NCBI RefSeq assembly: GCF_021246445.1 | Contig: NZ_JAJQXW010000001.1 | Location: 1,878,168-1,942,167, forward strand | Reading direction: 5' to 3' | DNA length: 64,000 bases | DNA from: Rhabdothermincola salaria | GTDB taxonomy: Bacteria; Actinomycetota; Acidimicrobiia; Acidimicrobiales; Acidimicrobilacustridaceae | Shown here: positions 3 through 12,088 of the stretch, piece after piece | Numbering within the stretch: the first letter of the stretch is position 1 | Layout of the letters: each line of letters starts with the position of its first letter | Notes under the pieces: generated by a model | Seen by the model: the letters and a program-made list of their open reading frames with translations, nothing else | Told to the model about the DNA's origin: nothing | The model's database searches: none | Made by a program: the position numbers and the translations under genes

Positions 3-1292
3 TGGACCGACGACACCTCCATGGCGCTGTGCATGGCCGAGTCGCTCGTCGACTGCGACGAGCTCGACCTCGCCGACCACCTCCGGCGCTACGTGCTCTG
101 GCGAGACCAGGGGTATCTGGCGTCCAACGGTCGCTGCTTCGACATCGGCGGCACCGTCGCCGGCCAGCTTCGCCGCTTCGAGCGCACCGGCGAGGCTGTC
201 GACCCCCAGCCTGACGAGGACGCCGCTGCCAACGGCTCTCTCATGCGACTGGCACCGGTCCCGATCCGCTGGCACACCGACATCGCCGAGGCCGCCGAAC
301 GCTCCGGGGAGTCGAGCCGGTCCACGCACGCCGCAACCCGCCCCGTCGACGCCTGCCGGGTGCTGGGCGCCATGACGGCCGCTCTCATCGGAGGGATGCC
401 GGCCGAGGAGGTCCTCGACCCCGACTTCTGGTCGTGGGGTCCATTGCACCCGGAGATCGAGGCCGTGGCCCGTGGGTCGTGGCGGGACCGGCAGCCTCCG
501 CAGATCCGAGGCACCGGGTACTGCGTCGACGCCCTCGAGGCGGCCATCTGGGCCGTGGCCGGCGCGCAGGACTTCGCCGACGCCGTGTTGCGGGCGGCAA
601 ACCTCGGCGACGACGCCGACACCACCGCCGCCATCGCCGGCCAGCTCGCCGGTGCCCGCTGGGGAGCATCCGGGATCCCCGCCGACTGGCGAGACGTACT
701 GGCGCTCGGCAGCCGCATCACCGAGCTGGGCCGGCAGCTCCACGCCCGGGGAGCCGGGGCGACTCCGCCCGTGCCGTGGGCGCACGACGACCACCACCAC
801 GCCTGGTGGGTCGAACCGGGTGCCGTCCTCGCCGGCGAGTACCCCGCCACCCGTCGCGGGCCGGTCGCCACCCGGGCCAAGGTCGACCTGCTGGTCGATG
901 CCGGCGTGCACACCTTCATCGACCTCACCACACCGGAAGACCAGCTGACCCTGTACGCCCCGGTGCTCGCCGAGGTGGGCACCGCTCGCGGCCTCGACCT
1001 CGAGCACGTCCCGGTCCCCATCCCCGACCTCGACATCACCACCGACGCCGAGTACGACCGTCTGGTCCAGCTGATCGGCATCCATCGCGAGCGCGGCGTG
1101 GTGTACGTGCACTGCTGGGGCGGCATCGGCCGCACCGGCACCGTCATCGGCTGCCTGCTCGCCGACCAGGGCCACGACTTCGACTCGATCACCACCCGCC
1201 TGAGTGACATGCGCGCCGGAACCCGCAAGGCCCATCGACCCGCGCCCGAGACCGCCGAACAGGTCGACGTGCTGCGGCGGCGAGGCCGGTAG
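3..1292 (+). CDS. ADP-ribosylglycohydrolase fused to a cysteine (dual-specificity-type) phosphatase, 5' partial
   Basis: The reading frame is already open at the window edge, so the N-terminus is missing; 429 residues remain. The first residues are WTDDTSMAL, the first metal-binding motif of DraG/ARH-type ADP-ribosylglycohydrolases. The second motif, NLGDDADTTAAIAGQ, lies around residues 200-213. These enzymes use two magnesium ions to cleave ADP-ribose from modified targets. After a linker near residue 260 comes a second domain with HCWGGIGRTG around residue 370, the HCx5R active-site loop of tyrosine/dual-specificity phosphatases; the conserved Asp that would act as general acid is probably in the PDLD stretch about 35 residues upstream. 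No signal peptide can be judged. The pairing suggests one protein reversing two modifications, which is inference. The domain calls are secure; the substrate is unknown. Confidence 0.88.
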   Translation, partial: WTDDTSMALCMAESLVDCDELDLADHLRRYVLWRDQGYLASNGRCFDIGGTVAGQLRRFERTGEAVDPQPDEDAAANGSLMRLAPVPIRWHTDIAEAAERSGESSRSTHAATRPVDACRVLGAMTAALIGGMPAEEVLDPDFWSWGPLHPEIEAVARGSWRDRQPPQIRGTGYCVDALEAAIWAVAGAQDFADAVLRAANLGDDADTTAAIAGQLAGARWGASGIPADWRDVLALGSRITELGRQLHARGAGATPPVPWAHDDHHHAWWVEPGAVLAGEYPATRRGPVATRAKVDLLVDAGVHTFIDLTTPEDQLTLYAPVLAEVGTARGLDLEHVPVPIPDLDITTDAEYDRLVQLIGIHRERGVVYVHCWGGIGRTGTVIGCLLADQGHDFDSITTRLSDMRAGTRKAHRPAPETAEQVDVLRRRGR

Positions 1293-3292: not shown

Positions 3293-4045
3293 ATGACCGC
3301 ACGGGACGAACTCATCCAGGCCGCCGCTTCACTCGAGTCGAAGGGCCAGCAGACCTTCTCACCCGCCGAGCTGATCGCCGAAGCTCGGAGACGAGGGGCC
3401 CGCTACCCCGACTCCACTCTCCGCACGCAGATCACCTCGGGCCTACGAACGGACCAGGGGATCGCAGCAAGGGGTCAGGGGTTGGTCCGGGTCGATCGTG
3501 GCGAGTACCGCCTGGACTCGGCCGGCGCATCCACGGCCCCTCCGGTGAGACGTCCGCGGATCCCGACGCCACGCGCCGATCTTCCGCCACCACCTGAGGA
3601 TGCTGCCCACCGCTACTGGTTCTGGGAGGGCAACGTCCAAGACGCCGTCGTCCGCATGCTCACGGCCGACGGGTGGTCGATCGTGAGAGTCGCCGACACC
3701 CGGACCAAGGAGGCTGGTGTCGACGTCGAAGCCCGCCGGGGCCACGAGCATCTCCTCATCGAGGTCAAGGGCTATCCCAGCACCATCTACAGCAGCGGGC
3801 CAAAGAAGGGACAGCCCAAGCCGACCGGCACTGCGACACAGGCGAGGACCTACTTCGCCGGGGCTCTGCTCACCGGGATGCTCATGCGGTCCGGCAACCC
3901 AGATGCCCGCGTCGTGCTCGCCTTCCCGGCCTTCTCCACCTTCGAGACCCTGGCCGGACGCATCCTCGACCCGGCAACGAGAGCAGGGTTGGAGGTGTGG
4001 CTCGTCACCGAATCCGGTGAGGTTCGCGGCGCCCACACCCCGTAG
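3293..4045 (+). CDS. Winged-helix plus PD-(D/E)XK nuclease-like protein
   Basis: 250 residues. The N-terminal part (about 1-75) reads as a small helical/winged DNA-binding domain of the kind found in front of restriction-type nucleases (DUF7669-like by eye). After a proline linker (85-102) comes a nuclease-like core: E113 in WEGNVQDAV, then GVDVEARR with D144, then LLIEVKGYPS with E157 and K159, which is the spacing of a PD-(D/E)XK active site. The start is the ATG at 3293 with GAAAGGG upstream; an in-frame ATG at 3203 has no such site. It is the first gene of a nuclease-rich block. Restriction or another defence role is plausible, but no partner methylase or helicase is present. Confidence 0.8.
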   Translation: MTARDELIQAAASLESKGQQTFSPAELIAEARRRGARYPDSTLRTQITSGLRTDQGIAARGQGLVRVDRGEYRLDSAGASTAPPVRRPRIPTPRADLPPPPEDAAHRYWFWEGNVQDAVVRMLTADGWSIVRVADTRTKEAGVDVEARRGHEHLLIEVKGYPSTIYSSGPKKGQPKPTGTATQARTYFAGALLTGMLMRSGNPDARVVLAFPAFSTFETLAGRILDPATRAGLEVWLVTESGEVRGAHTP

Positions 4046-4265
4046 TCGACCTTCGGACTGGACGCCTCGTCGTGCAGCCGCCTCAGACGCGGAGAACGAC
4101 TCCGGCCGGACGGGCGCTCACCACCTCGACCTCGGGAACCCGAGCCAACCACGCCAGGACGCCTGACCGCCGCTCACGTGCTGCCCCAGGGCCGCGACGA
4201 TCAGCTACTCGATACCAGTTCTGCCGAGAACTCTGTCGCGAGCCCGGGGTGTAGACACGAGAGAC

Positions 4266-5234
4266 ATGAGTGCGATGGCGAGGCTGGAGTTCAGACGGCT
4301 CAGTGAAGCGTGGCGCGGCGAAGCGACGGACTTCACCCCCCTCCTAGGAGAGCAACTCGACGCCCTCGGTGATGCGATAGGCGTGGATCTGGCGACCGTC
4401 GGCGAGTGGGAGGTCGCAACCGCGGGCGGCCGGCGGATCGACATCGTCGCCAGCGACGCGAACGGCGTCGAGTTCGTCATCGAGAACCAGTACGGGAAGG
4501 CGGACCACGACCACCTGACCCGCGGCTTGGCCTATGCCGTGGCCCGTCGCGCACGAGGGCTCGTCGTCGTGGCCGAGGAGCACCGCGACGAGTTCCGCGC
4601 AGTCGCCGAGTACCTCAACGAGATGGCTGAACTCGATGCCGAACGGGGTATCCCCGTCTGGCTCGTGGAGGCGAAGGCCGTCCGGATCGGAGACAGTCCC
4701 TGGGCACCGCTCTTCTCGGTCGCGGTCGAGCCGAACCAGTTCACCGCCACGGTCGAACAGGTCCGGCAACGGGACCGCTCCCCCGCATCGATCGAAGCCT
4801 TCTGGGAGCAGTTCAGCTCCGACGACACGCTCGCCGCGACCAAAGATCTCGTTGCCGCGTGGAAGGCCGACGGGCACCGGTGGCGCCTCGGCCCGACGCA
4901 CGTCGTGTTGATGGCCGAAGGCCCCTCGGCCAACGGGTTCCGCACGGTGGTGGCCATCTACAGCGACGGCCACGTGATGGTTCCGTTCCACTCCTACGCA
5001 GGGGTGAACAGCGGCATCCCGGTCGAATCACTCACCGAACCAGCGTTCCGGCACGAGGCCGATGCACTGTTCGGCTTCAACGGAACGGAACGCCTGGCGA
5101 GCACCGAAACGGGGTGGGTGACGACCGACCGGGTCGAGCCACTCCTTCGCTTCTGCCGCACTGTGGCCAGCGCCTATCGGTCAGCTCTCGACGACGTCGA
5201 GGCACCCCTCAGCGCGTCCGCACGGGAGCTGTGA
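4266..5234 (+). CDS. PD-(D/E)XK-type nuclease-like protein (DUF4268-related)
   Basis: 322 residues. The core is RRIDIVASDANGVEFVIENQ (residues 56-75), followed by DHDHLTRGLAYA. This matches a widespread PD-(D/E)XK family in which D59 and the E-x-Q pair (E73, Q75) occupy the D and E-x-K positions and the DHDHL helix follows. The second half (about 165-320) is a separate alpha/beta domain with GFRTVVAIYSDGHVMVPF, resembling the DUF4268-type tail. The ATG is at 4266, 220 bp downstream of the preceding nuclease gene on the same strand. No membrane segment is present. It probably acts on DNA in the cytoplasm. The Q in place of the usual K is normal for this family. Function is inferred from the fold only. 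Confidence 0.75.
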   Translation: MSAMARLEFRRLSEAWRGEATDFTPLLGEQLDALGDAIGVDLATVGEWEVATAGGRRIDIVASDANGVEFVIENQYGKADHDHLTRGLAYAVARRARGLVVVAEEHRDEFRAVAEYLNEMAELDAERGIPVWLVEAKAVRIGDSPWAPLFSVAVEPNQFTATVEQVRQRDRSPASIEAFWEQFSSDDTLAATKDLVAAWKADGHRWRLGPTHVVLMAEGPSANGFRTVVAIYSDGHVMVPFHSYAGVNSGIPVESLTEPAFRHEADALFGFNGTERLASTETGWVTTDRVEPLLRFCRTVASAYRSALDDVEAPLSASAREL

Positions 5235-5361
5235 GGCGCAATGGCGTGCTCCTGAGGCGGATCGGGAGCGACCCGATCTGAGGAACCTGCTTCGACTCGC
5301 GGAGCGGGACCCGAGCCAGGAGAGTGCAGCCATGGGCCCCAGGGCCGAGACCTCAGTGCGC
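5235..5361. other. Intergenic stretch before a possible small ORF
   Basis: Between the DUF4268-like gene and the candidate small gene at 5362. GGATCGGGAGCGACCCGATC (5259-5278) can form a hairpin and may act as a terminator for the plus-strand gene. Nothing else was seen. From 5500 to 5653 I also see no gene. Confidence 0.35.
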
Positions 5362-5499
5362 TCACCCCGGAGTTCGTACGGACTCCATCAAGCTGGCAAC
5401 CGCCAGCATCTCCTCGCGATCGGCTTCGTCGGCGTCGAGCTCTGCGGCTTCGGCGGCGAGGGACGACCGTTCCCGCAGGCGTCGGACGGCATCGACCAA
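5362..5499 (-). pseudogene. Possible antitoxin-like small ORF or remnant
   Basis: 45 residues if read from TTG at 5499: it includes LRERSSLAAEAAELDADEAD and ends LMESVRTPG. The composition (acidic, Ala/Leu/Glu-rich, no Cys) is that of a real helical protein rather than a random frame, and resembles the C-terminal half of small antitoxins. A TGA lies just upstream of the TTG, so either this is a very short gene with a weak start or it is the broken tail of an antitoxin whose N-terminus has been lost. It sits 155 bp beyond the end of the toxin gene at 5654, on the same strand. I cannot name a family. Confidence 0.35.
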
Positions 5500-5653
5500 G
5501 GCCGATCAGATGACCGAACGACGGCCGCAGTTGTCGCTACGACGTGGGCATTTTCGACCCCGGCGCCCGCGGAGCCACCCGTGCCGAGCCGACGTCGCCG
5601 ATCATCTGTCCCGTCCGCAGGGACCCACGTCGGTAGGACACCACTGCAGAGGG

Positions 5654-6052
5654 TCAGACGGTGAGCACCTCGACGGCGCACTCGATCGTGGGCGCCGTGG
5701 CCAGGCGGGCGTCGGCCGTGACCAGTCGCCAACCGAGAGCCTCGGCGAGAGCCACGTAGCAAGCGGCGTAGGCAGTGACGTTGGCCCGCAAGGCGAAGGC
5801 CCGCGGCATGAGCGGCCCGGTCGGCAATCGACGGATCGGCAGGGCCAACAGGTCGTCGACGGCAGCCGCGAACCGTTCGTCGGACAGGCCGCCTTTCAGC
5901 CAGGCGCGCTGAAGGACGGCGACCGTCTCGACGTCGAGGAGGTCGGGGGCCGCCACCTCGTCGACCTCACGAAGACGACGTCGAGCGATCCTTCCGGCGT
6001 CCTCGTCGTCGCCGACGGCATTGGCGATGACCGAGGCATCGACGACGATCAC
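5654..6052 (-). CDS. PIN-domain toxin (VapC type)
   Basis: 132 residues, the usual length. The N-terminus VIVVDASVIANAV carries the first PIN aspartate, a conserved acidic residue follows in LLDVETVAVLQR, and the third acidic site is in WRLVTADARLA. Such proteins are magnesium-dependent endoribonucleases that cut tRNA or rRNA when free of their antitoxin. The GTG start overlaps the antitoxin stop (GTGA, 6052-6049), so the pair is translationally coupled with antitoxin first, as expected for type II systems. The RNA target cannot be read from sequence. Confidence 0.88.
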   Translation of the reverse strand: MIVVDASVIANAVGDDEDAGRIARRRLREVDEVAAPDLLDVETVAVLQRAWLKGGLSDERFAAAVDDLLALPIRRLPTGPLMPRAFALRANVTAYAACYVALAEALGWRLVTADARLATAPTIECAVEVLTV

Positions 6053-6279
6053 CGCCGCCCGCGCTCCTCGGCGAGGTCGTCGACGGCCGAGTCGAGGCCC
6101 ACCCGGCCGCCGGAGCGTTCGTCGATCCGGGCCAGGACGTCGCCGAGCGACGGCGTGGACGCGACCCGGGTCAGCTCGCGGGTGAGGAACTGCTGCAACG
6201 ACTGGCCCTCCGCCTCGGCTCGGCGCTGCAGGCGGGCGTGCACGTCGTCGGGCAGATCGCGGATCAAGACGTTCGGCAT
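6049..6279 (-). CDS. Ribbon-helix-helix antitoxin (FitA type)
   Basis: 76 residues. MPNVLIRDLPDDVHARLQRR followed by SLQQFLTREL is the ribbon-helix-helix DNA-binding fold of FitA/VapB antitoxins. The acidic C-terminal half (DERSGGRVGLDSAVDDLAEE) would wrap the toxin active site. It lies directly upstream of, and overlaps, the PIN toxin gene. The dimer normally represses its own promoter; the 79 bp between this gene and the HNH gene at 6359 would hold that promoter, though a read-through transcript from the HNH gene is also possible. The ATG at 6279 is the only start that gives the family's N-terminus. Confidence 0.85.
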   Translation of the reverse strand: MPNVLIRDLPDDVHARLQRRAEAEGQSLQQFLTRELTRVASTPSLGDVLARIDERSGGRVGLDSAVDDLAEERGRR

Positions 6280-6358
6280 GCTTGCATTCTGCTTGCACGG
6301 GGCGCTGAAGACAACGCCCTCGATCCACGCCGAGCACCAGCTCGGAGCGGCCGAGGAC

Positions 6359-7414
6359 CTACACCGCGACCGGGCCGTCCGCCGCTTCGAACACCCGGTC
6401 CTCCACCCACAGCGGCGTGCCGGCCACCACGTGGCCGTACGTCGAGCGCACGAGCGCCAGGCTGCGGGCCGGGTCACTGACCCAGCCGGCACCCGCCGCC
6501 ACAGCCACGAGGTCGGTCCCCGACCGATCGAAGCGGGTCCGCCACTGGTCCAGGTGGCTCGTGGCCGCCAGATGCGAGCTCTTCATCGTGTTGCACCGAT
6601 CGGCCGCCACCAGGTTCTCGATGGCGTCGTTCGGCCAGCGCGACCACGCCAGGAAGTGATCCACCTGGACCGATCTGCGCAAGGGAGAGCCGCAGTAGAA
6701 GCAGCGGCCTTCCTGCAGCTCGACGAGGCCCTTGCGCAGCGGCGCGGGGAACGCGGCACGCTCGGCGCCGAACAGGTGCCCATGCAGGCGCTCGTCCTCC
6801 AGGCTGATCCCGGACCACTTGGCCACGTCGGCGGCCCAGTGCACCTCGATGAGGGGCCGCAGCAACGGGCCCAGCACGATGAGCCGGTCGGCGACCCCGG
6901 GGAGGAGCCGCAGGACATCACGGCCGTCTCGGCGCAACGACGACGCGCTCGTGCCTTCGGGCCAATCGGGCTCGTAGAGGAACGGGACCGGCTCGCTCCC
7001 GATGACCTGCAGCAACGGGATGGGATAGCGAACGAACGTGTCCTCCACCTTGGCCACGGCCGCGGCGTAGTCGTCCTTCAGCTGGACCTGGATGTCGGCC
7101 AACGTGCGTAGACCGGCGGCCTCGGCGGCGTCGTGGAGCTGCTCCACGGCGCGGATCACCGCCGACCGCTTGTTGGTGATCTGGCGCAACGCGTGGACCG
7201 ACCCGTCGTTGCTCACGTAGGACGGGACCTGCCGCAAGTACGTGTGGAGGACCGACGCGGCGATCGCTCGGGTCGGGATGTCGGATCGACCGGGAGCCAG
7301 GGCAGCCGCGTCGATGAGGGCGCTCAACAACGCCAACTTGTAGGTCGCCGTCCGCCGACCTTCGTCGATGACCTGCAACAGGCGCTCGAGCAGGAGGTCG
7401 TCACTCACGACCAC
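6359..7414 (-). CDS. HNH endonuclease with a helical N-terminal region
   Basis: 351 residues. The first 230 residues are mostly helical, beginning with RTATYKLALLSALIDAA, a signature I have seen in front of other HNH nucleases. The C-terminal nuclease is clear: CFYC (C238, C241), VQVDHFLAWSRWPNDAIENL with D252-H253 and N267, then ADRCNTMKSSHL. This is a complete zinc/metal betabetaalpha-Me HNH motif. The start is GTG at 7414 or GTG at 7408; both lie in the 73-bp gap to the divergent HNH gene at 7488. It is followed at 80 bp by the toxin-antitoxin pair. It probably cuts DNA as part of a defence function; there is no direct evidence of the target. Confidence 0.85.
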   Translation of the reverse strand: MVVSDDLLLERLLQVIDEGRRTATYKLALLSALIDAAALAPGRSDIPTRAIAASVLHTYLRQVPSYVSNDGSVHALRQITNKRSAVIRAVEQLHDAAEAAGLRTLADIQVQLKDDYAAAVAKVEDTFVRYPIPLLQVIGSEPVPFLYEPDWPEGTSASSLRRDGRDVLRLLPGVADRLIVLGPLLRPLIEVHWAADVAKWSGISLEDERLHGHLFGAERAAFPAPLRKGLVELQEGRCFYCGSPLRRSVQVDHFLAWSRWPNDAIENLVAADRCNTMKSSHLAATSHLDQWRTRFDRSGTDLVAVAAGAGWVSDPARSLALVRSTYGHVVAGTPLWVEDRVFEAADGPVAV

Positions 7415-7487
7415 AGCTTGCCGGACACGGCCCGCTCGTCTCCGGCTCCGGCGGATCTCCTACGCTCTGCGCACCTGGAGGTGCGGC
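7415..7487. promoter_or_regulatory. Divergent promoter region between two HNH genes
   Basis: 73 bp separates the two HNH genes, so both promoters must overlap here or inside the 5' ends. The plus-strand side carries CTGGAGGTGCGGC before ATG 7488. I see no clean -35/-10 pair. Confidence 0.4.
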
Positions 7488-8387
7488 ATGGCGGAGCCGG
7501 ATGCGGACTGGATGATGAGGTGGGCGGCGTTCGCCTACGTCGAAGACCTCACCACCCGTTTCGGTGACGTCCTGCCGTGGAGCGCGCTCACCGAAGGGTT
7601 CACCTTCGCCGGGCAACGGGTCACGCTCATCGGCCAGCGCGGCATCTGGCGGGCACGGGGATGGCCGATGCCGATCTCCATCACGACCAGCCCGAACGAC
7701 CCCTACGGCGACGTCGCCGGCGACGACGGGTTCCTCCGCTACCGCTACTTCGGCACTGATCCCGCCCACGCCGACAACCGGGGGTTGCGCTCGCTCATGG
7801 AGCAAGGCCGACCCCTCCTCTACTTCCGGGGTGTCGCCAAGGGCCTGTACTCGCCGCTGTGGCCCATGGTCATCGTCGCCGACGACCCCAAGCGCCTCAC
7901 GTTCCTGATGGCCTGCGAGGACGTCGAGGCGCTCGCCCCGGGCGTGACCATCGACGCCGCCGACGACGCCCGTCGCCAGTACGTCACCCGCCTCGCCCTC
8001 ACCCGGGTCCACCAGGCCGGGTTCCGTCAGCGGGTCCTGGCCGCCTACGCCACCCGCTGCAGCATCTGCCACCTGCGCCACAGCGAGCTGCTCGACGCCG
8101 CCCACATCCTGAGCGACCGTCACCCACGAGGTGAGCCGGTCGTGCCCAACGGCCTGGCCCTCTGCAAGATCCACCACGCCGCGTTCGACGCCAACATCCT
8201 CGGCATCCGGCCCGACCACGTCGTGGAGATCCGCCACGACATCCTCGACGAGGTCGACGGGCCCATGCTGCGCCATGGCCTCCAGGACCTCCACGGCAAC
8301 CTCATCAGGCTCCCCCACCGTCCGCCCGACCGACCGGACCCGGACCGCCTCGAAGAGCGCTACTCGGAGTACCGCGATGCCGGCTGA
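7488..8387 (+). CDS. HNH endonuclease (COG3440-like predicted restriction endonuclease)
   Basis: 299 residues. The N-terminal 160 residues form a conserved domain with GQRGIWRARG, LRYRYFGTDP, DNRGLRSLMEQGRPLLYF and GLYSPLWPMVIVADDP, as in many actinobacterial predicted HNH restriction enzymes; it may be a modified-DNA or nucleotide sensor, but that is unproven. The C-terminus is an HNH_2-type nuclease: CSIC (191-194), SELLDAAHI (H206), NGLALCKIHHAAFD (N221, H229, H230), then a tail with DGPMLRHGLQDLHG. The start at 7488 has a GGAGG site. It overlaps the NERD gene by 11 bp (8377-8387), so the two are made together. It is probably a standalone or two-gene DNA-cleaving defence function. Confidence 0.85.
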   Translation: MAEPDADWMMRWAAFAYVEDLTTRFGDVLPWSALTEGFTFAGQRVTLIGQRGIWRARGWPMPISITTSPNDPYGDVAGDDGFLRYRYFGTDPAHADNRGLRSLMEQGRPLLYFRGVAKGLYSPLWPMVIVADDPKRLTFLMACEDVEALAPGVTIDAADDARRQYVTRLALTRVHQAGFRQRVLAAYATRCSICHLRHSELLDAAHILSDRHPRGEPVVPNGLALCKIHHAAFDANILGIRPDHVVEIRHDILDEVDGPMLRHGLQDLHGNLIRLPHRPPDRPDPDRLEERYSEYRDAG

Positions 8388-9276
8388 GCCCCCGGGCCAC
8401 CCGGGATCGGACGACTCGAGGCCGCAGACGGCCCACACGTCCATACGGCTCCGGTATCCCGGTCACTGTCGGAGCTGCAACGAACCCCTTCCAGCAGGCA
8501 CCACGGCGACGTGGGACCAGGCAACCAAGACGATCACCTGCCTCAGGTGCGCGACGGCCACAGATCCGAGTCCGAGCGGGGCAACGACCGACCTTGCTGA
8601 TGATGCCCCGGCGGGGGCCGACATCGACCTGGGCCGAGCAGGACGCTCCGCCGAGCAGATCGCCGTCCGGGCCAAGGCACGCCACGAGGCCGACATCCGG
8701 GGCCGCTTCCCCCGCATCGGCGGCGCCATCCTCGCGGTGACCAAGGATCCCACGGCCACGCGCACCTACGGCAAGGGAGCCAGCGGTGAACGGCTGGTGG
8801 GTAGCCGTCTCGACGCCGTCGCCGATCAGGGCGTCGTCGCTCTCCACGACCGCCGCAAACCCCGGTCCCGAGGCAACATCGACCACATCGCCGTCACACC
8901 GACCGGCGTCTACGTCATCGACACCAAGCGCTACTCGGGTCGCCTCGAGCGGCGCGATGTCGGAGGCTGGTTCCGTCGGGACATCCGCCTCTACATCGGG
9001 GGAAGGGACCGCACGCCACTCGCGGCCGCCGTCGCCGACCAGGCAGCCGCGGTGCGGTGCGCGCTCGGCACCGAGTTCGACGGTCTCCCGGTGCGACCGG
9101 CACTCTGCTTCGTCGACATCGACGCCTCCCTCCTCCTGAAGCCCTTCGAGCTCGACGGCGTTCTCGTCACCTGGCCTCGCGCGCTGCAGAAGACCGTGAG
9201 CCGAACCGGACCCATCGCCGCCGAGACCATCGAGGCCGCAGTGCACCATCTCGGCCGCCACTTCCCACCGGCCTGA
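8377..9276 (+). CDS. Zinc-ribbon NERD-domain (nuclease-related) protein
   Basis: 299 residues. Residues 24-60 form a zinc ribbon with RYPGHCRSC (C31, C34) and ITCLRC (C55, C58). After a linker and a charged helix (91-115) comes a NERD domain: GASGERLV (135-142), NIDHIAVTPTGVYVIDTKRY with D169, D182 and K184 in the places of a PD-(D/E)XK-like active site. NERD domains are nuclease-related modules often attached to helicases or kinases; here it stands with only a zinc ribbon. The ATG at 8377 lies inside the end of the HNH gene, with CGGAG upstream, which indicates translational coupling. Joint action with the HNH protein is inferred from this coupling. Confidence 0.85.
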   Translation: MPAEPPGHPGSDDSRPQTAHTSIRLRYPGHCRSCNEPLPAGTTATWDQATKTITCLRCATATDPSPSGATTDLADDAPAGADIDLGRAGRSAEQIAVRAKARHEADIRGRFPRIGGAILAVTKDPTATRTYGKGASGERLVGSRLDAVADQGVVALHDRRKPRSRGNIDHIAVTPTGVYVIDTKRYSGRLERRDVGGWFRRDIRLYIGGRDRTPLAAAVADQAAAVRCALGTEFDGLPVRPALCFVDIDASLLLKPFELDGVLVTWPRALQKTVSRTGPIAAETIEAAVHHLGRHFPPA

Positions 9277-9761
9277 ACGAGACGGCTGGGCCGTCGTCCC
9301 TCGCCCGTCGTCCCTCGCCCGTCGTCCCTCGCCCGTCGCTCGTCGCTCCGAGCGACCTCGGCCTCGCCGTCGTCGGCCCGCCGGTCGACTGTCCCATGCC
9401 ATTCCTAGGCTGACGCTCATCGATCGATCCGATGTGCTCGTCGGGCCCTGCGTGGTCTCGATGGGATGAAATCGGCCGGCGAGAGCCCGATTCGAATTCT
9501 CTTTCGGTTCCGGATTGCGTACATGAGTTCGATCCTGTAGAGTGCAGGTTCTTCCCCTTCTCGGCGCTTCTGGCGCCCTCTCAGCCGTCTCGTTCCGTTG
9601 GTCGAGGTGCGTGTGATGCCGCGAAGGGCCGAGCAGGTCCAACCAGGTTCGTCGGGCTCCCATCGCCGGTGCCCGCTGGTCGGGCGACCGCCGCGTGCTC
9701 CTGGCACGGTGGCGACGGTCTCGCCGGGCGCGTGCCCGCAGCTCGCCAGGCGGCTCCGGCC
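9277..9761. other. Intergenic/leader with tandem repeat and promoter
   Basis: Contains three adjacent copies of CGTCGTCCCTCGCC (about 9292-9334), then a locally A+T-richer stretch (9460-9560) with a promoter-like pair, and about 210 bp of leader before the DUF222 gene. No gene was seen. Confidence 0.6.
9515..9543 (+). promoter_or_regulatory. Promoter of the DUF222-HNH gene
   Basis: TTGCGT (9515-9520), 17 bp, then TAGAGT (9538-9543): a good sigma-70-type match in a locally A+T-richer zone, pointing towards the gene at 9762. It implies an untranslated leader of about 210 nt unless translation starts earlier. Confidence 0.5.
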
Positions 9762-11732
9762 ATGACGATCGCCGACACACCACCGCTCACGTTGGGCGAG
9801 ATCGTCGAGCACCTCGGGCGCTACGTCGATCGCTTCGAGGTCGGCGAGCTCTCCCCCAGCGACGCCGCCACCGCCGCCAAGCGCTTCGGCAAGGTCAAGC
9901 GCATGGCCCAGACCGCCGAGCTCCTCTGCATCAAGCGCGCCGCCGAGACGTCGAAGGTGCGTCGCCGCGACGACGTCGACGGATCCAAGTGGGCCGGCCG
10001 GCAGCTGGGCACCAGCCCCGGGCACGCCGCCGAGCTGCTCAACCTCGCCGGCGGTCTCGAGTCGGCCCCGCAGACCCTCGAGGCGCTCAAGGCCGGCGAC
10101 ATCTCCACCGAGCAGGCCGCAGAGGTGGTCCGCACCGAAAAGGTCGCCCCCGGGTCCGAGCGCAACATGCTCGACCAGGCCGAGAACTCCTCGCTCACCG
10201 AGCTCAAGCGCCGGGGCCGCAAGGTGCGAGCCGCCGCCATCGGGCCCGAAGAGCAGGCGGCTCGGGTGCACCGCGGGCGCTACCTGCGGGCCTGGGTCGA
10301 TGACGACGGCGCCGGGCGGGGCTCCTGGAGCCTCGAACTCGCCGAGCACACCCAGTTCATGGCGCTGGTCGAGGCCCACACCGACCTCGTCTTCCAGGAG
10401 GCCCGCCGTGAGGGCCGGCGAGAGCCCATGGACGCCTACCGAGCCGACGCCCTGGTCCGCGTCGCCAGAGCTGCCCTCCGCTCCCCCAAACGCCGGGGGC
10501 CGAAGTCCTCGTCGAGCGCCCCCGACGACCCCGCGCCCACCGATGCCGGCGTCGGCGCTCCTGCCTCCAGCGGCGCCGACCAACCCGATCAGGCCGAGCC
10601 CGGACCCACGTCGGGTCCGACGCCCGACACGCCCTCCGCCGCACCTTCCCCGGCGAATCCCCCACCCGACGAGCCACCATCCGGCCCCTCCCCGGCGGAT
10701 CCCCCACCCGACGAGCCACCATCCGGACCACCGCCGGCCGGCCCATCACCGCCCGGGCCCACGTCGGGTCCGACGCCCGAAGCCCCACCAGCAGAGGGCC
10801 AGACCTCGGTTTCCAGCGATCGTGGTTCCGAGGCACCCGCGCCCGCCGAGGTGCTCGTCCACGTCAGCCACCGGCTCCTGCTCGAGGGACTCGATGACCC
10901 GCGGGACGCGGCCACGACGAACGAGCAGCCCTTCGGTGTCGGCTTCGATCGTTGCGCCGACGAAGGCCAGGTCGACAACCAACTCAAGCTCGCCGACCTG
11001 GCCGGCCCTGCCCACGCTGCCGACCACTCCGACCCAACTAACGCCGCCGACCGGACCCCCTCCGTCCCTGCAGCCGACAGAGCCGACCCGGCCGACGTGG
11101 CCGACGTGGCCAAGCCGGGCGACCTGGCCGAGATCGTGGGGCAGGGCCCGATCCCCGTGGGGGTCGTCCGCCAATGGCTGGGCCAGGGGGCGTTCGTCGC
11201 CCTGGTCGTGACCGCCGACGACGACCCCCTCGACGTCCGCTCCGTGCTCCACCTCGGGCGACGCTCACCGCTCGTCCGCCAGCTCTGGTCCCCCGTGCAC
11301 GGGCCTGCTGGTCGGCCCGCCGGGCCCGATCGCGACACCAGTGCCCACCACATCAAGGTCATCGTGCAGCTCACCGAGCAGGAGCTGCGGCACCCGGCGT
11401 CGGCGCCCCTGCAGGCTGCCGTGCGGATGCGAGGCGTCGACGTCGCCGACCTCGTCCACCGTGGCCGGCGACCCAACGCCGTCCAGCGCACCGCCCTGCA
11501 GTGGCGTTCGCCGGTGTGCGCCGTGCTCGGCTGCTCCAACCGCATCCGCCTCGAGGCCGACCACGTCGTCGAATGGTGCCTCACCGGCCACACCACCCTC
11601 TCCGAGCTCGAGCACCTCTGCCGGCAGCATCACCGCATGAAGACCCATGACGGCTACCGCCTCGCCCCCGGCACGGGCAAGCGGCCTCTCCTCCCACCCA
11701 CCGACCCCCTGGCAGAAGCGGCCGACCCATGA
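9762..11732 (+). CDS. DUF222 / 13E12-repeat protein with C-terminal HNH nuclease
   Basis: 656 residues. The N-terminal half is DUF222 (about 1-230): helical, with KRFGKVKRMAQTAELLCIKR and GTSPGHAAELLNLA. A long linker (about 245-365) is made of proline-rich imperfect repeats such as PPPDEPPSGP, plus a second Ala/Asp-rich linker near 400-445. The C-terminus carries CAVLGCSNRIRLEADHVVEW and HLCRQHHRMKTHDGYRL, the HNH motif. This family is abundant and multicopy in actinobacteria, and its role (mobile element, repair or defence) is unsettled. The ATG at 9762 is the only good start before the conserved region; no strong ribosome site is seen. The linker is unusually long. Confidence 0.85.
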   Translation: MTIADTPPLTLGEIVEHLGRYVDRFEVGELSPSDAATAAKRFGKVKRMAQTAELLCIKRAAETSKVRRRDDVDGSKWAGRQLGTSPGHAAELLNLAGGLESAPQTLEALKAGDISTEQAAEVVRTEKVAPGSERNMLDQAENSSLTELKRRGRKVRAAAIGPEEQAARVHRGRYLRAWVDDDGAGRGSWSLELAEHTQFMALVEAHTDLVFQEARREGRREPMDAYRADALVRVARAALRSPKRRGPKSSSSAPDDPAPTDAGVGAPASSGADQPDQAEPGPTSGPTPDTPSAAPSPANPPPDEPPSGPSPADPPPDEPPSGPPPAGPSPPGPTSGPTPEAPPAEGQTSVSSDRGSEAPAPAEVLVHVSHRLLLEGLDDPRDAATTNEQPFGVGFDRCADEGQVDNQLKLADLAGPAHAADHSDPTNAADRTPSVPAADRADPADVADVAKPGDLAEIVGQGPIPVGVVRQWLGQGAFVALVVTADDDPLDVRSVLHLGRRSPLVRQLWSPVHGPAGRPAGPDRDTSAHHIKVIVQLTEQELRHPASAPLQAAVRMRGVDVADLVHRGRRPNAVQRTALQWRSPVCAVLGCSNRIRLEADHVVEWCLTGHTTLSELEHLCRQHHRMKTHDGYRLAPGTGKRPLLPPTDPLAEAADP

Positions 11733-12088
11733 CCCAGGCGGTCCGACGGGCCACGCCACGCGACAGGCGACAGGCGACAGGCGACAGGCGACAGGCGACA
11801 GGCGACAGGCGACAGACGATGTGAGACGTCGGCCGGCTGCGCGTTCAGCCCGCTCGCCGCCCCGGGCGGACAGCCGCACAACCGCACAACGGCACGGCAG
11901 GACGGCGCTGCGCCAACCCACGAGACACGACGGCAGGACGGCGGTGCGCCAACCCACGAGACGCGACGCCAGCCCGGCCAGCGCCAACCCACGAAACCCG
12001 ACGCCAGCCCGGCCAGCGCCAACCCACGAAACCCGACGCCCGCCCACACGACGCCAGCCCACACGACGGCGACCGGCGGTGCGGGGGG
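11733..12088. repeat. Intergenic repeat zone between convergent genes
   Basis: Positions 11761-11809 hold seven perfect CGACAGG heptamers plus a degenerate eighth copy. From about 11893 to 12066 follow imperfect repeats containing CAACCCACGA and ACGCCAGCCCG. No gene is supported; frames running through it are repeat artefacts. Confidence 0.75.

What the first reader, a model, noticed from the sequence alone, without database searches (positions are those of the whole stretch)
3293..9276. Nuclease-rich block, candidate uncharacterised defence island
Seen: within 6 kb lie two PD-(D/E)XK-like proteins, a PIN toxin with antitoxin, two divergent HNH proteins and a zinc-ribbon NERD protein; a DUF222-HNH gene follows. 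No methylase, helicase, transposase or integrase accompanies them. Known: such crowding is typical of defence islands. Inferred: at least one may be a new small anti-phage or anti-plasmid system.
Basis: partly seen in the sequence, partly recalled or inferred. Interest (0 to 1): 0.6.

Follow-up and report, generated by a model that had tools for sequence, protein, structure and literature searches.

The report
Nuclease gene cluster with modified-DNA cutter
This 6 kb stretch is a cluster of separately inherited DNA-cutting and toxin genes of the kind bacteria keep for defence; it is not one new system, and its best-understood gene most likely cuts foreign DNA carrying chemically marked cytosines, a known type of enzyme that name-matching had missed here.

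Summary
They do not form one system. Each is scattered through relatives on its own, and the two HNH families co-occur no more than chance. A defence-type cluster is the better description. Members of the same families, or known defence genes, recur beside each other in unrelated genomes: NERD beside either HNH gene, PDC-S11, Thoeris-type TIR, PsyrT, phosphorothioate-dependent SBD-HNH. The clearest gene is the HNH at 7488-8387. Its predicted structure is an SRA base-flipping domain joined to an HNH nuclease, the architecture of TagI and ScoA3IV. Base-pocket tyrosines, HNH catalytic residues and zinc ligands are invariant in 60 homologues from many phyla. It is most likely a type IV, modified-cytosine-dependent restriction enzyme: a distant member of a known kind. 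A helper role for the translationally coupled NERD gene is inference. A genome-level test for incompatibility with cytosine-C5 methyltransferases was not significant. The HNH gene at 6359-7414 remains without a known N-terminal fold. Nothing here was tested in the laboratory.

The parts
3293..4045 (+). DUF7669 domain plus Hjc-like PD-(D/E)XK nuclease domain (250 aa)
   Evidence: Pfam DUF7669 27.0 bits over cut-off; Hjc 17.4 bits under cut-off; only 3 of 98 relatives have a match, best 52% identity
4266..5234 (+). PDC-S11-like PD-(D/E)XK protein (322 aa)
   Evidence: PADLOC PDC-S11 E 7e-41 over residues 3-186; 68% orthologues only in G013 and G054; invariant D59, E73, Q75, H81, H83
5654..6052 (-). 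PIN-domain toxin, VapC type (132 aa)
   Evidence: Pfam PIN 43.4 bits; a 65% identical DNA stretch over the pair lies elsewhere in the same genome
6049..6279 (-). FitA/VapB-type ribbon-helix-helix antitoxin (76 aa), overlaps the toxin gene by 4 bases
   Evidence: Pfam FitA-like_RHH 40.4 bits; NCBIfam VapB_Myco 39.5 bits, under its cut-off of 60
6359..7414 (-). HNH protein with unidentified helical N-terminal part (351 aa), GTG start
   Evidence: HNH at residues 225-295; relatives in 19 of 394 class genomes; predicted model poor, pLDDT 56
7488..8387 (+). SRA-HNH protein, candidate modification-dependent restriction endonuclease (299 aa)
   Evidence: Predicted structure: residues 9-173 SRA fold, 175-299 HNH; pocket and catalytic residues invariant in 60 homologues; found in 43 of 394 class genomes and across many phyla
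8377..9276 (+). Zinc-ribbon NERD protein (299 aa), start overlaps the SRA-HNH stop by 11 bases
   Evidence: Pfam NERD 58.8 bits; C31, C34, C55, C58 and D169, D182, K184 (numbering of window:8377-9276) invariant in four orthologues; beside an HNH gene in G001, G004 and G096
9762..11732 (+).
   Evidence: PHROG HNH E 1.5e-4 at residues 573-629; no Pfam match

Best explanation
The block is a defence-type gene cluster built from independently mobile units, not one machine. Its clearest unit is the gene at 7488-8387. The N-terminal SRA domain most likely flips a modified cytosine (5mC or 5hmC) out of incoming DNA into a pocket walled by Tyr73 and Tyr85 and read by Asp75, and the C-terminal HNH domain, probably as a dimer, cuts nearby. 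That is a stand-alone type IV restriction enzyme needing no methyltransferase partner. The NERD nuclease gene is translationally coupled to it and probably serves the same response (inferred). The PDC-S11-like nuclease, the HNH gene at 6359-7414 and the PIN toxin-antitoxin pair are separate units. Shown: gene content, patchy distribution, recurrent neighbours, predicted fold, invariant residues. Inferred: substrate, cleavage, anti-phage or anti-plasmid role.
For: Fold: AlphaFold2 on 60 aligned homologues (mean pLDDT 83.5, N-terminal 150 residues mostly above 90). VIA-align: SUVH5 SRA Z 10.9, rmsd 3.1, 124 residues; ScoMcrA SRA Z 9.3; MspJI Z 9.0; VcaM4I HNH Z 8.5, rmsd 2.9, 112 residues. Foldseek's only match with E<=0.001 is TagI, 1.1e-6. 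Residues: TagI pocket Tyr55/Asp58/Tyr67 and HNH Ala228-His229, Asn245, Cys250, His254, Asp258 (PMC6212794) compare with Tyr73/Asp75/Tyr85 and Ala205-His206, Asn221, Cys226, His230, Asp234, all invariant in 60 of 60. Defence context: G001's orthologue sits with an SBD-HNH enzyme (NF045808, 317.9 bits against a 180 cut-off), a NERD gene and a ThsB-type TIR gene. In other phyla homologues adjoin SBD-HNH (L104), PDC-S11 (L158, 453.6 bits), PsyrT (L099, 758 bits), a second HNH_2 family (6 of 80 loci within 0.8 kb) and homologues of the 6359-7414 protein (L129, L121). Patchiness. No C5 methyltransferase was found in the host genome.
Against: The carboxylate is at +2 from the first pocket tyrosine, not +3 as in TagI. 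Confidence of the HNH half is lower (block means of pLDDT 54-68 in residues 191-240) and identity to TagI is about 20%. A test that the gene avoids genomes with C5 methyltransferases gave 7/43 against 85/351, p 0.34; an earlier hand-picked set (1/10 against 12/19, p 0.008) did not hold up. Many homologues sit among ordinary genes. The NERD link rests on three other genomes. There is no expression or phage data.
Confidence: 0.7

Rival explanations
1. The SRA-HNH gene (or the HNH gene at 6359-7414) and the NERD gene form a real two-gene system in which the HNH enzyme makes the first cut in modified foreign DNA and the NERD nuclease processes or amplifies the damage.
For: 11-base overlap of 7488-8387 with the NERD gene. 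NERD orthologues adjoin the SRA-HNH gene in G001 (about 130 bases) and the 6359-7414-type HNH gene in G004 (6 bases, convergent) and G096 (same strand). A different NERD protein lies 148 bases from an SRA-HNH homologue in L098.
Against: Most SRA-HNH homologues have no NERD neighbour: of 80 loci only L098, L112 and L146 have a NERD-type match. Order and strand differ in every case, and G054, G003 and G005 carry the NERD gene without either HNH gene beside it. Shared residence in defence-type regions explains it equally well.
Confidence: 0.2
2. All seven genes form one new multi-gene defence system.
For: They are close together within 6 kb.
Against: The families are distributed independently among relatives. 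The two HNH families co-occur in 2 genomes against 2.1 expected of 394. Strands alternate and there are several transcription units.
Confidence: 0.03
3. The genes are ordinary repair, competence or selfish (homing-type) nucleases that happen to lie together, with no role in defence.
For: Many homologues of 7488-8387 lie among metabolic genes. HNH domains also occur in homing enzymes (general knowledge), and NERD proteins need not be defence proteins (for example SmdA, a NERD protein in staphylococcal cell division, PMC9040797).
Against: SRA sensor fused to HNH; invariant pocket and catalytic residues over many phyla; repeated adjacency to other modification-dependent nucleases, TIR and PDC-S11 genes.
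Confidence: 0.2
4. The gene at 7488-8387 is a phosphorothioate-dependent SBD-HNH enzyme.
For: Its HNH half matches NF045808 (59.6 bits).
Against: Below the 180-bit cut-off and only over residues 172-283. True SBD-HNH neighbours score 298-318 bits over full length. The N-terminal half is SRA-like by fold.
Confidence: 0.05

Closest known systems
SRA-HNH modification-dependent restriction endonucleases (TagI, ScoA3IV, TbiR51I)
   Same: N-terminal SRA and C-terminal HNH in about 300 residues; two pocket tyrosines 12 residues apart; Ala-His, Asn, His and +4 Asp in the HNH; CxxC plus CxxH zinc ligands
   Different: About 20% identity to TagI; pocket Asp at +2 instead of +3; not recognised by the Pfam or NCBIfam models beyond the HNH part; modification dependence untested
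SBD-HNH phosphorothioate-dependent enzymes (SprMcrA, EcoWI; NCBIfam NF045808)
   Same: Related HNH_2-type nuclease half; found next door in G001 and L104
   Different: N-terminal reader is SRA-like here, and the score is under the family cut-off
PADLOC candidate PDC-S11
   Same: N-terminal 186 residues of 4266-5234 match, E 7e-41
   Different: The C-terminal 40% is not matched; PDC-S11 is itself only a candidate
Septu PtuB / PDC-M01B HNH proteins
   Same: HNH core of 6359-7414
   Different: Match covers only about 55-65 residues; no PtuA-type ATPase beside it; different N-terminal part
VapBC / FitAB toxin-antitoxin
   Same: RHH antitoxin followed by PIN toxin with overlapping genes
   Different: No notable difference

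Membership tests
SRA-HNH modification-dependent endonucleases | N-terminal SRA domain | tested here: met
   Predicted model residues 9-173: Z 10.9 to SUVH5 SRA, 9.3 to ScoMcrA SRA, 9.0 to MspJI; prediction, not an experiment
SRA-HNH modification-dependent endonucleases | C-terminal HNH with intact catalytic and zinc residues | tested here: met
   His206, Asn221, His230, Asp234, Cys191/194/226 and His229 invariant in 60 homologues; spacing as in TagI from Asn245 onward
SRA-HNH modification-dependent endonucleases | Flipped-base pocket: two tyrosines and a carboxylate | tested here: inconclusive
   Tyr73 and Tyr85 match the spacing of Tyr55/Tyr67; Asp75 is at +2, not +3; geometry in the model not inspected
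SRA-HNH modification-dependent endonucleases | Cleavage dependent on 5mC or 5hmC | not testable with these tools
   Needs biochemistry; the genome-level proxy was not significant
SBD-HNH phosphorothioate-dependent enzymes (NF045808) | Whole-length match above the curated cut-off | tested here: not met
   59.6 bits against 180, HNH half only
PDC-S11 | Full-length match to the PADLOC model | tested here: inconclusive
   138.6 bits over residues 3-186 of 322; PADLOC's own thresholds are not given
Septu (PtuAB) | PtuA ATPase beside a PtuB HNH protein | tested here: not met
   No ATPase gene beside 6359-7414
VapBC toxin-antitoxin | RHH-type antitoxin gene followed by PIN toxin gene | tested here: met
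Defence island | Patchy genes that cluster with known defence genes in other genomes | tested here: met
Defence island | Presence or absence of the block between close strains | not testable with these tools
   Only one same-genus genome, too diverged: little of window 1-40 kb aligns

The most novel reading that the evidence does not exclude
SRA-HNH (or 6359-7414-type HNH) plus zinc-ribbon NERD is a two-component type IV defence system in which a modified-base-reading nuclease works with a NERD nuclease, and the 6359-7414-type HNH protein carries a new N-terminal sensor.
Probability: 0.18. Interest if true: 0.55.

Novelty: new member of a known kind. Interest (0 to 1): 0.36.

Why it matters
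A large bacterial family (43 of 394 genomes of the class; more than 500 loci in GTDB species across many phyla) that the libraries used here call only 'HNH endonuclease' can now be tested directly as cytosine-modification-dependent restriction enzymes. Its repeated pairing with other HNH enzymes, SBD-HNH enzymes and NERD proteins suggests that cells stack readers for different DNA modifications in one place. The block itself is an ordinary, mixed defence-type cluster.

Tried and rejected
Single-system hypothesis: rejected from independent distributions. Phosphorothioate reader: considered because of NF045808, rejected on score and fold. Anti-association of the SRA-HNH gene with C5 methyltransferases: significant in a hand-picked set but not in 394 class genomes (p 0.34; p 0.095 after dropping genomes with partial or distant hits), so not used as support. 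Synteny with the one same-genus genome: too diverged to show an empty site. Promoter and terminator scan: no more than shuffles. The N-terminal domain of the tandem HNH_2 partner (L160 4492-5415 and relatives) was suspected to be EVE-like by eye, but Pfam gave only HNH_2, so it is left unnamed. Two key papers (PMC4333417, PMC6765204) are not held, so I could not compare directly with ScoA3IV or with the published architecture screen.
Full report
What is there. The window is 64 kb of a 3.9 Mb, about 70% GC genome. Between 3293 and 9276 lie seven genes in several transcription units: 3293-4045+ and 4266-5234+ (PD-(D/E)XK type), 6049-6279- and 5654-6052- (RHH antitoxin and PIN toxin, 4-base overlap), 6359-7414- and 7488-8387+ (two HNH genes, divergent, 73 bases apart), and 8377-9276+ (zinc-ribbon NERD), which overlaps the preceding gene by 11 bases. 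No tRNA was found.

Is the crowding real? PADLOC models matched by 46 other window genes at E<=1e-10 are mainly RecD/UvrD helicase models (plus PDC-S68, PDC-S53 and PDC-M16A models, each in one member), and a RecBCD-like pair lies at 59.4-64 kb. So the concentration of nucleases at 3.3-9.3 kb is local. About 2.5 kb left of the window a NERD-UvrD helicase gene matches an RT-associated NERD-helicase model (89 bits), so the neighbourhood extends beyond the window.

Not core, not one system. Among 98 relatives the SRA-HNH family matched 14, the 6359-7414 family 12 (only four of them over most of the length), the PDC-S11-like gene 8 (two closely), the DUF7669 nuclease 3 and the NERD gene 12. In 394 genomes of the class the two HNH families were in 43 and 19 genomes and shared only 2, as chance predicts. 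The one same-genus genome has the SRA-HNH gene (80% identity) and a NERD gene (45%) in a different setting and in the opposite order.

Recurrent neighbours. Although independent, the families keep turning up beside each other or beside known defence genes. NERD orthologues lie beside the 6359-7414 family in G004 and G096 and beside the SRA-HNH gene in G001. In G001 the same few kilobases hold an SBD-HNH phosphorothioate-dependent enzyme (317.9 bits against a cut-off of 180) and a ThsB-type TIR gene. In 80 loci from other genomes of many phyla the SRA-HNH gene adjoins an SBD-HNH gene (L104), a PDC-S11 gene (L158, 453.6 bits), a PsyrT helicase (L099, 758 bits), a homologue of the 6359-7414 protein (L129 at 40 bases, L121 at 1.4 kb), and in six loci within 0.8 kb a second HNH_2 family whose N-terminal domain I could not name. 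Many other copies sit among ordinary genes, so the association is a tendency, not a rule.

The gene at 7488-8387. A 60-sequence alignment gave a model with mean pLDDT 83.5. Residues 9-173 match SRA domains (SUVH5 Z 10.9, rmsd 3.1 over 124 residues; ScoMcrA 9.3; MspJI 9.0). Residues 175-299 match HNH domains (VcaM4I Z 8.5). Foldseek's only significant match is the SRA-HNH enzyme TagI (E 1.1e-6). TagI's base pocket uses Tyr55, Asp58 and Tyr67, and its HNH uses Ala228-His229, Asn245, Cys250, His254 and Asp258 (PMC6212794). The family here has invariant Tyr73, Asp75, Tyr85, Ala205-His206, Asn221, Cys226, His229, His230 and Asp234. The tyrosine spacing and the spacing from Asn onward are the same; the pocket aspartate is shifted by one residue. 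TagI cuts 5mC and 5hmC DNA, restricts hmC phage T4gt but not glucosylated T4, and needs no partner (PMC6212794, PMC12707154). The simplest reading is that this protein works in the same way. This is inference from architecture.

A test that did not support it. If the enzyme cuts 5mC DNA broadly, genomes with it should lack C5 methyltransferases. The host genome has none. A hand-picked comparison looked strong (1/10 against 12/19, p 0.008), but the even draw of 394 genomes did not confirm it (7/43 against 85/351, p 0.34; 4/35 against 85/351, p 0.095 after dropping genomes with partial or distant hits). I do not count it as evidence. Sequence-restricted specificity or compatible methylation motifs could explain this, or the substrate may differ.

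The other units. 4266-5234 matches candidate family PDC-S11 over its nuclease half only. 6359-7414 has an HNH core resembling PtuB, PDC-M01B and Cas9-type HNH domains and an unidentified N-terminal part; with only four usable sequences its model was poor. The PIN pair is ordinary. The NERD gene's zinc ribbon and nuclease residues are conserved. Whether it acts with the HNH enzymes is the most interesting open point.

Verdict. Observation confirmed; the defence-island reading is supported as a cluster, the new-system reading is not. The result is a distant member of a known kind of restriction enzyme inside an ordinary mixed defence-type cluster.

Noticed in passing
L076:15815-17455 (about 2.5 kb left of window position 1): NERD plus UvrD-type helicase gene matching PADLOC RTasNERD-Hel (89 bits) and a NERD+UvrD model; the nuclease-rich neighbourhood extends left of the window.
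   Followed up: partly
window 3-1292: ADP-ribosylglycohydrolase fused to a dual-specificity-type phosphatase domain (PTP-SAK/Tc-R-P) directly left of the block; a 71% identical DNA stretch is seen in G005 among the six relatives searched.
   Followed up: partly
L139, L143, L144, L160, L140, L129: SRA-HNH genes repeatedly lie in tandem (gaps of about 0-790 bases) with a second HNH_2 family whose ~170-residue N-terminal domain ('WVAVTD..WF.FL...EVNFWQPSG') matches no Pfam model.
   Followed up: partly
394 class genomes: The 6359-7414 HNH family is over-represented in genomes with C5 methyltransferases (11 of 19 against 81 of 375, p 0.0009); confounded by one genus with many copies of both.
   Followed up: no
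window 11754-11826, 11910-12062 and 9286-9341: Short tandem arrays of 14, 35 and 14 bases in the non-coding stretches around the DUF222-HNH-like gene.
   Followed up: no
G000:C1:1788523-1789144: A second toxin-antitoxin-like copy, 65% identical DNA to the RHH-PIN pair, in the same genome.
   Followed up: no
L063:8695-9657 (G092): A 320-residue protein of unknown family lies directly upstream of an SRA-HNH homologue (no gap); its N-terminus ('FVVIWNPEIWP') looks EVE/PUA-like by eye but matches no Pfam or PADLOC model.
   Followed up: no
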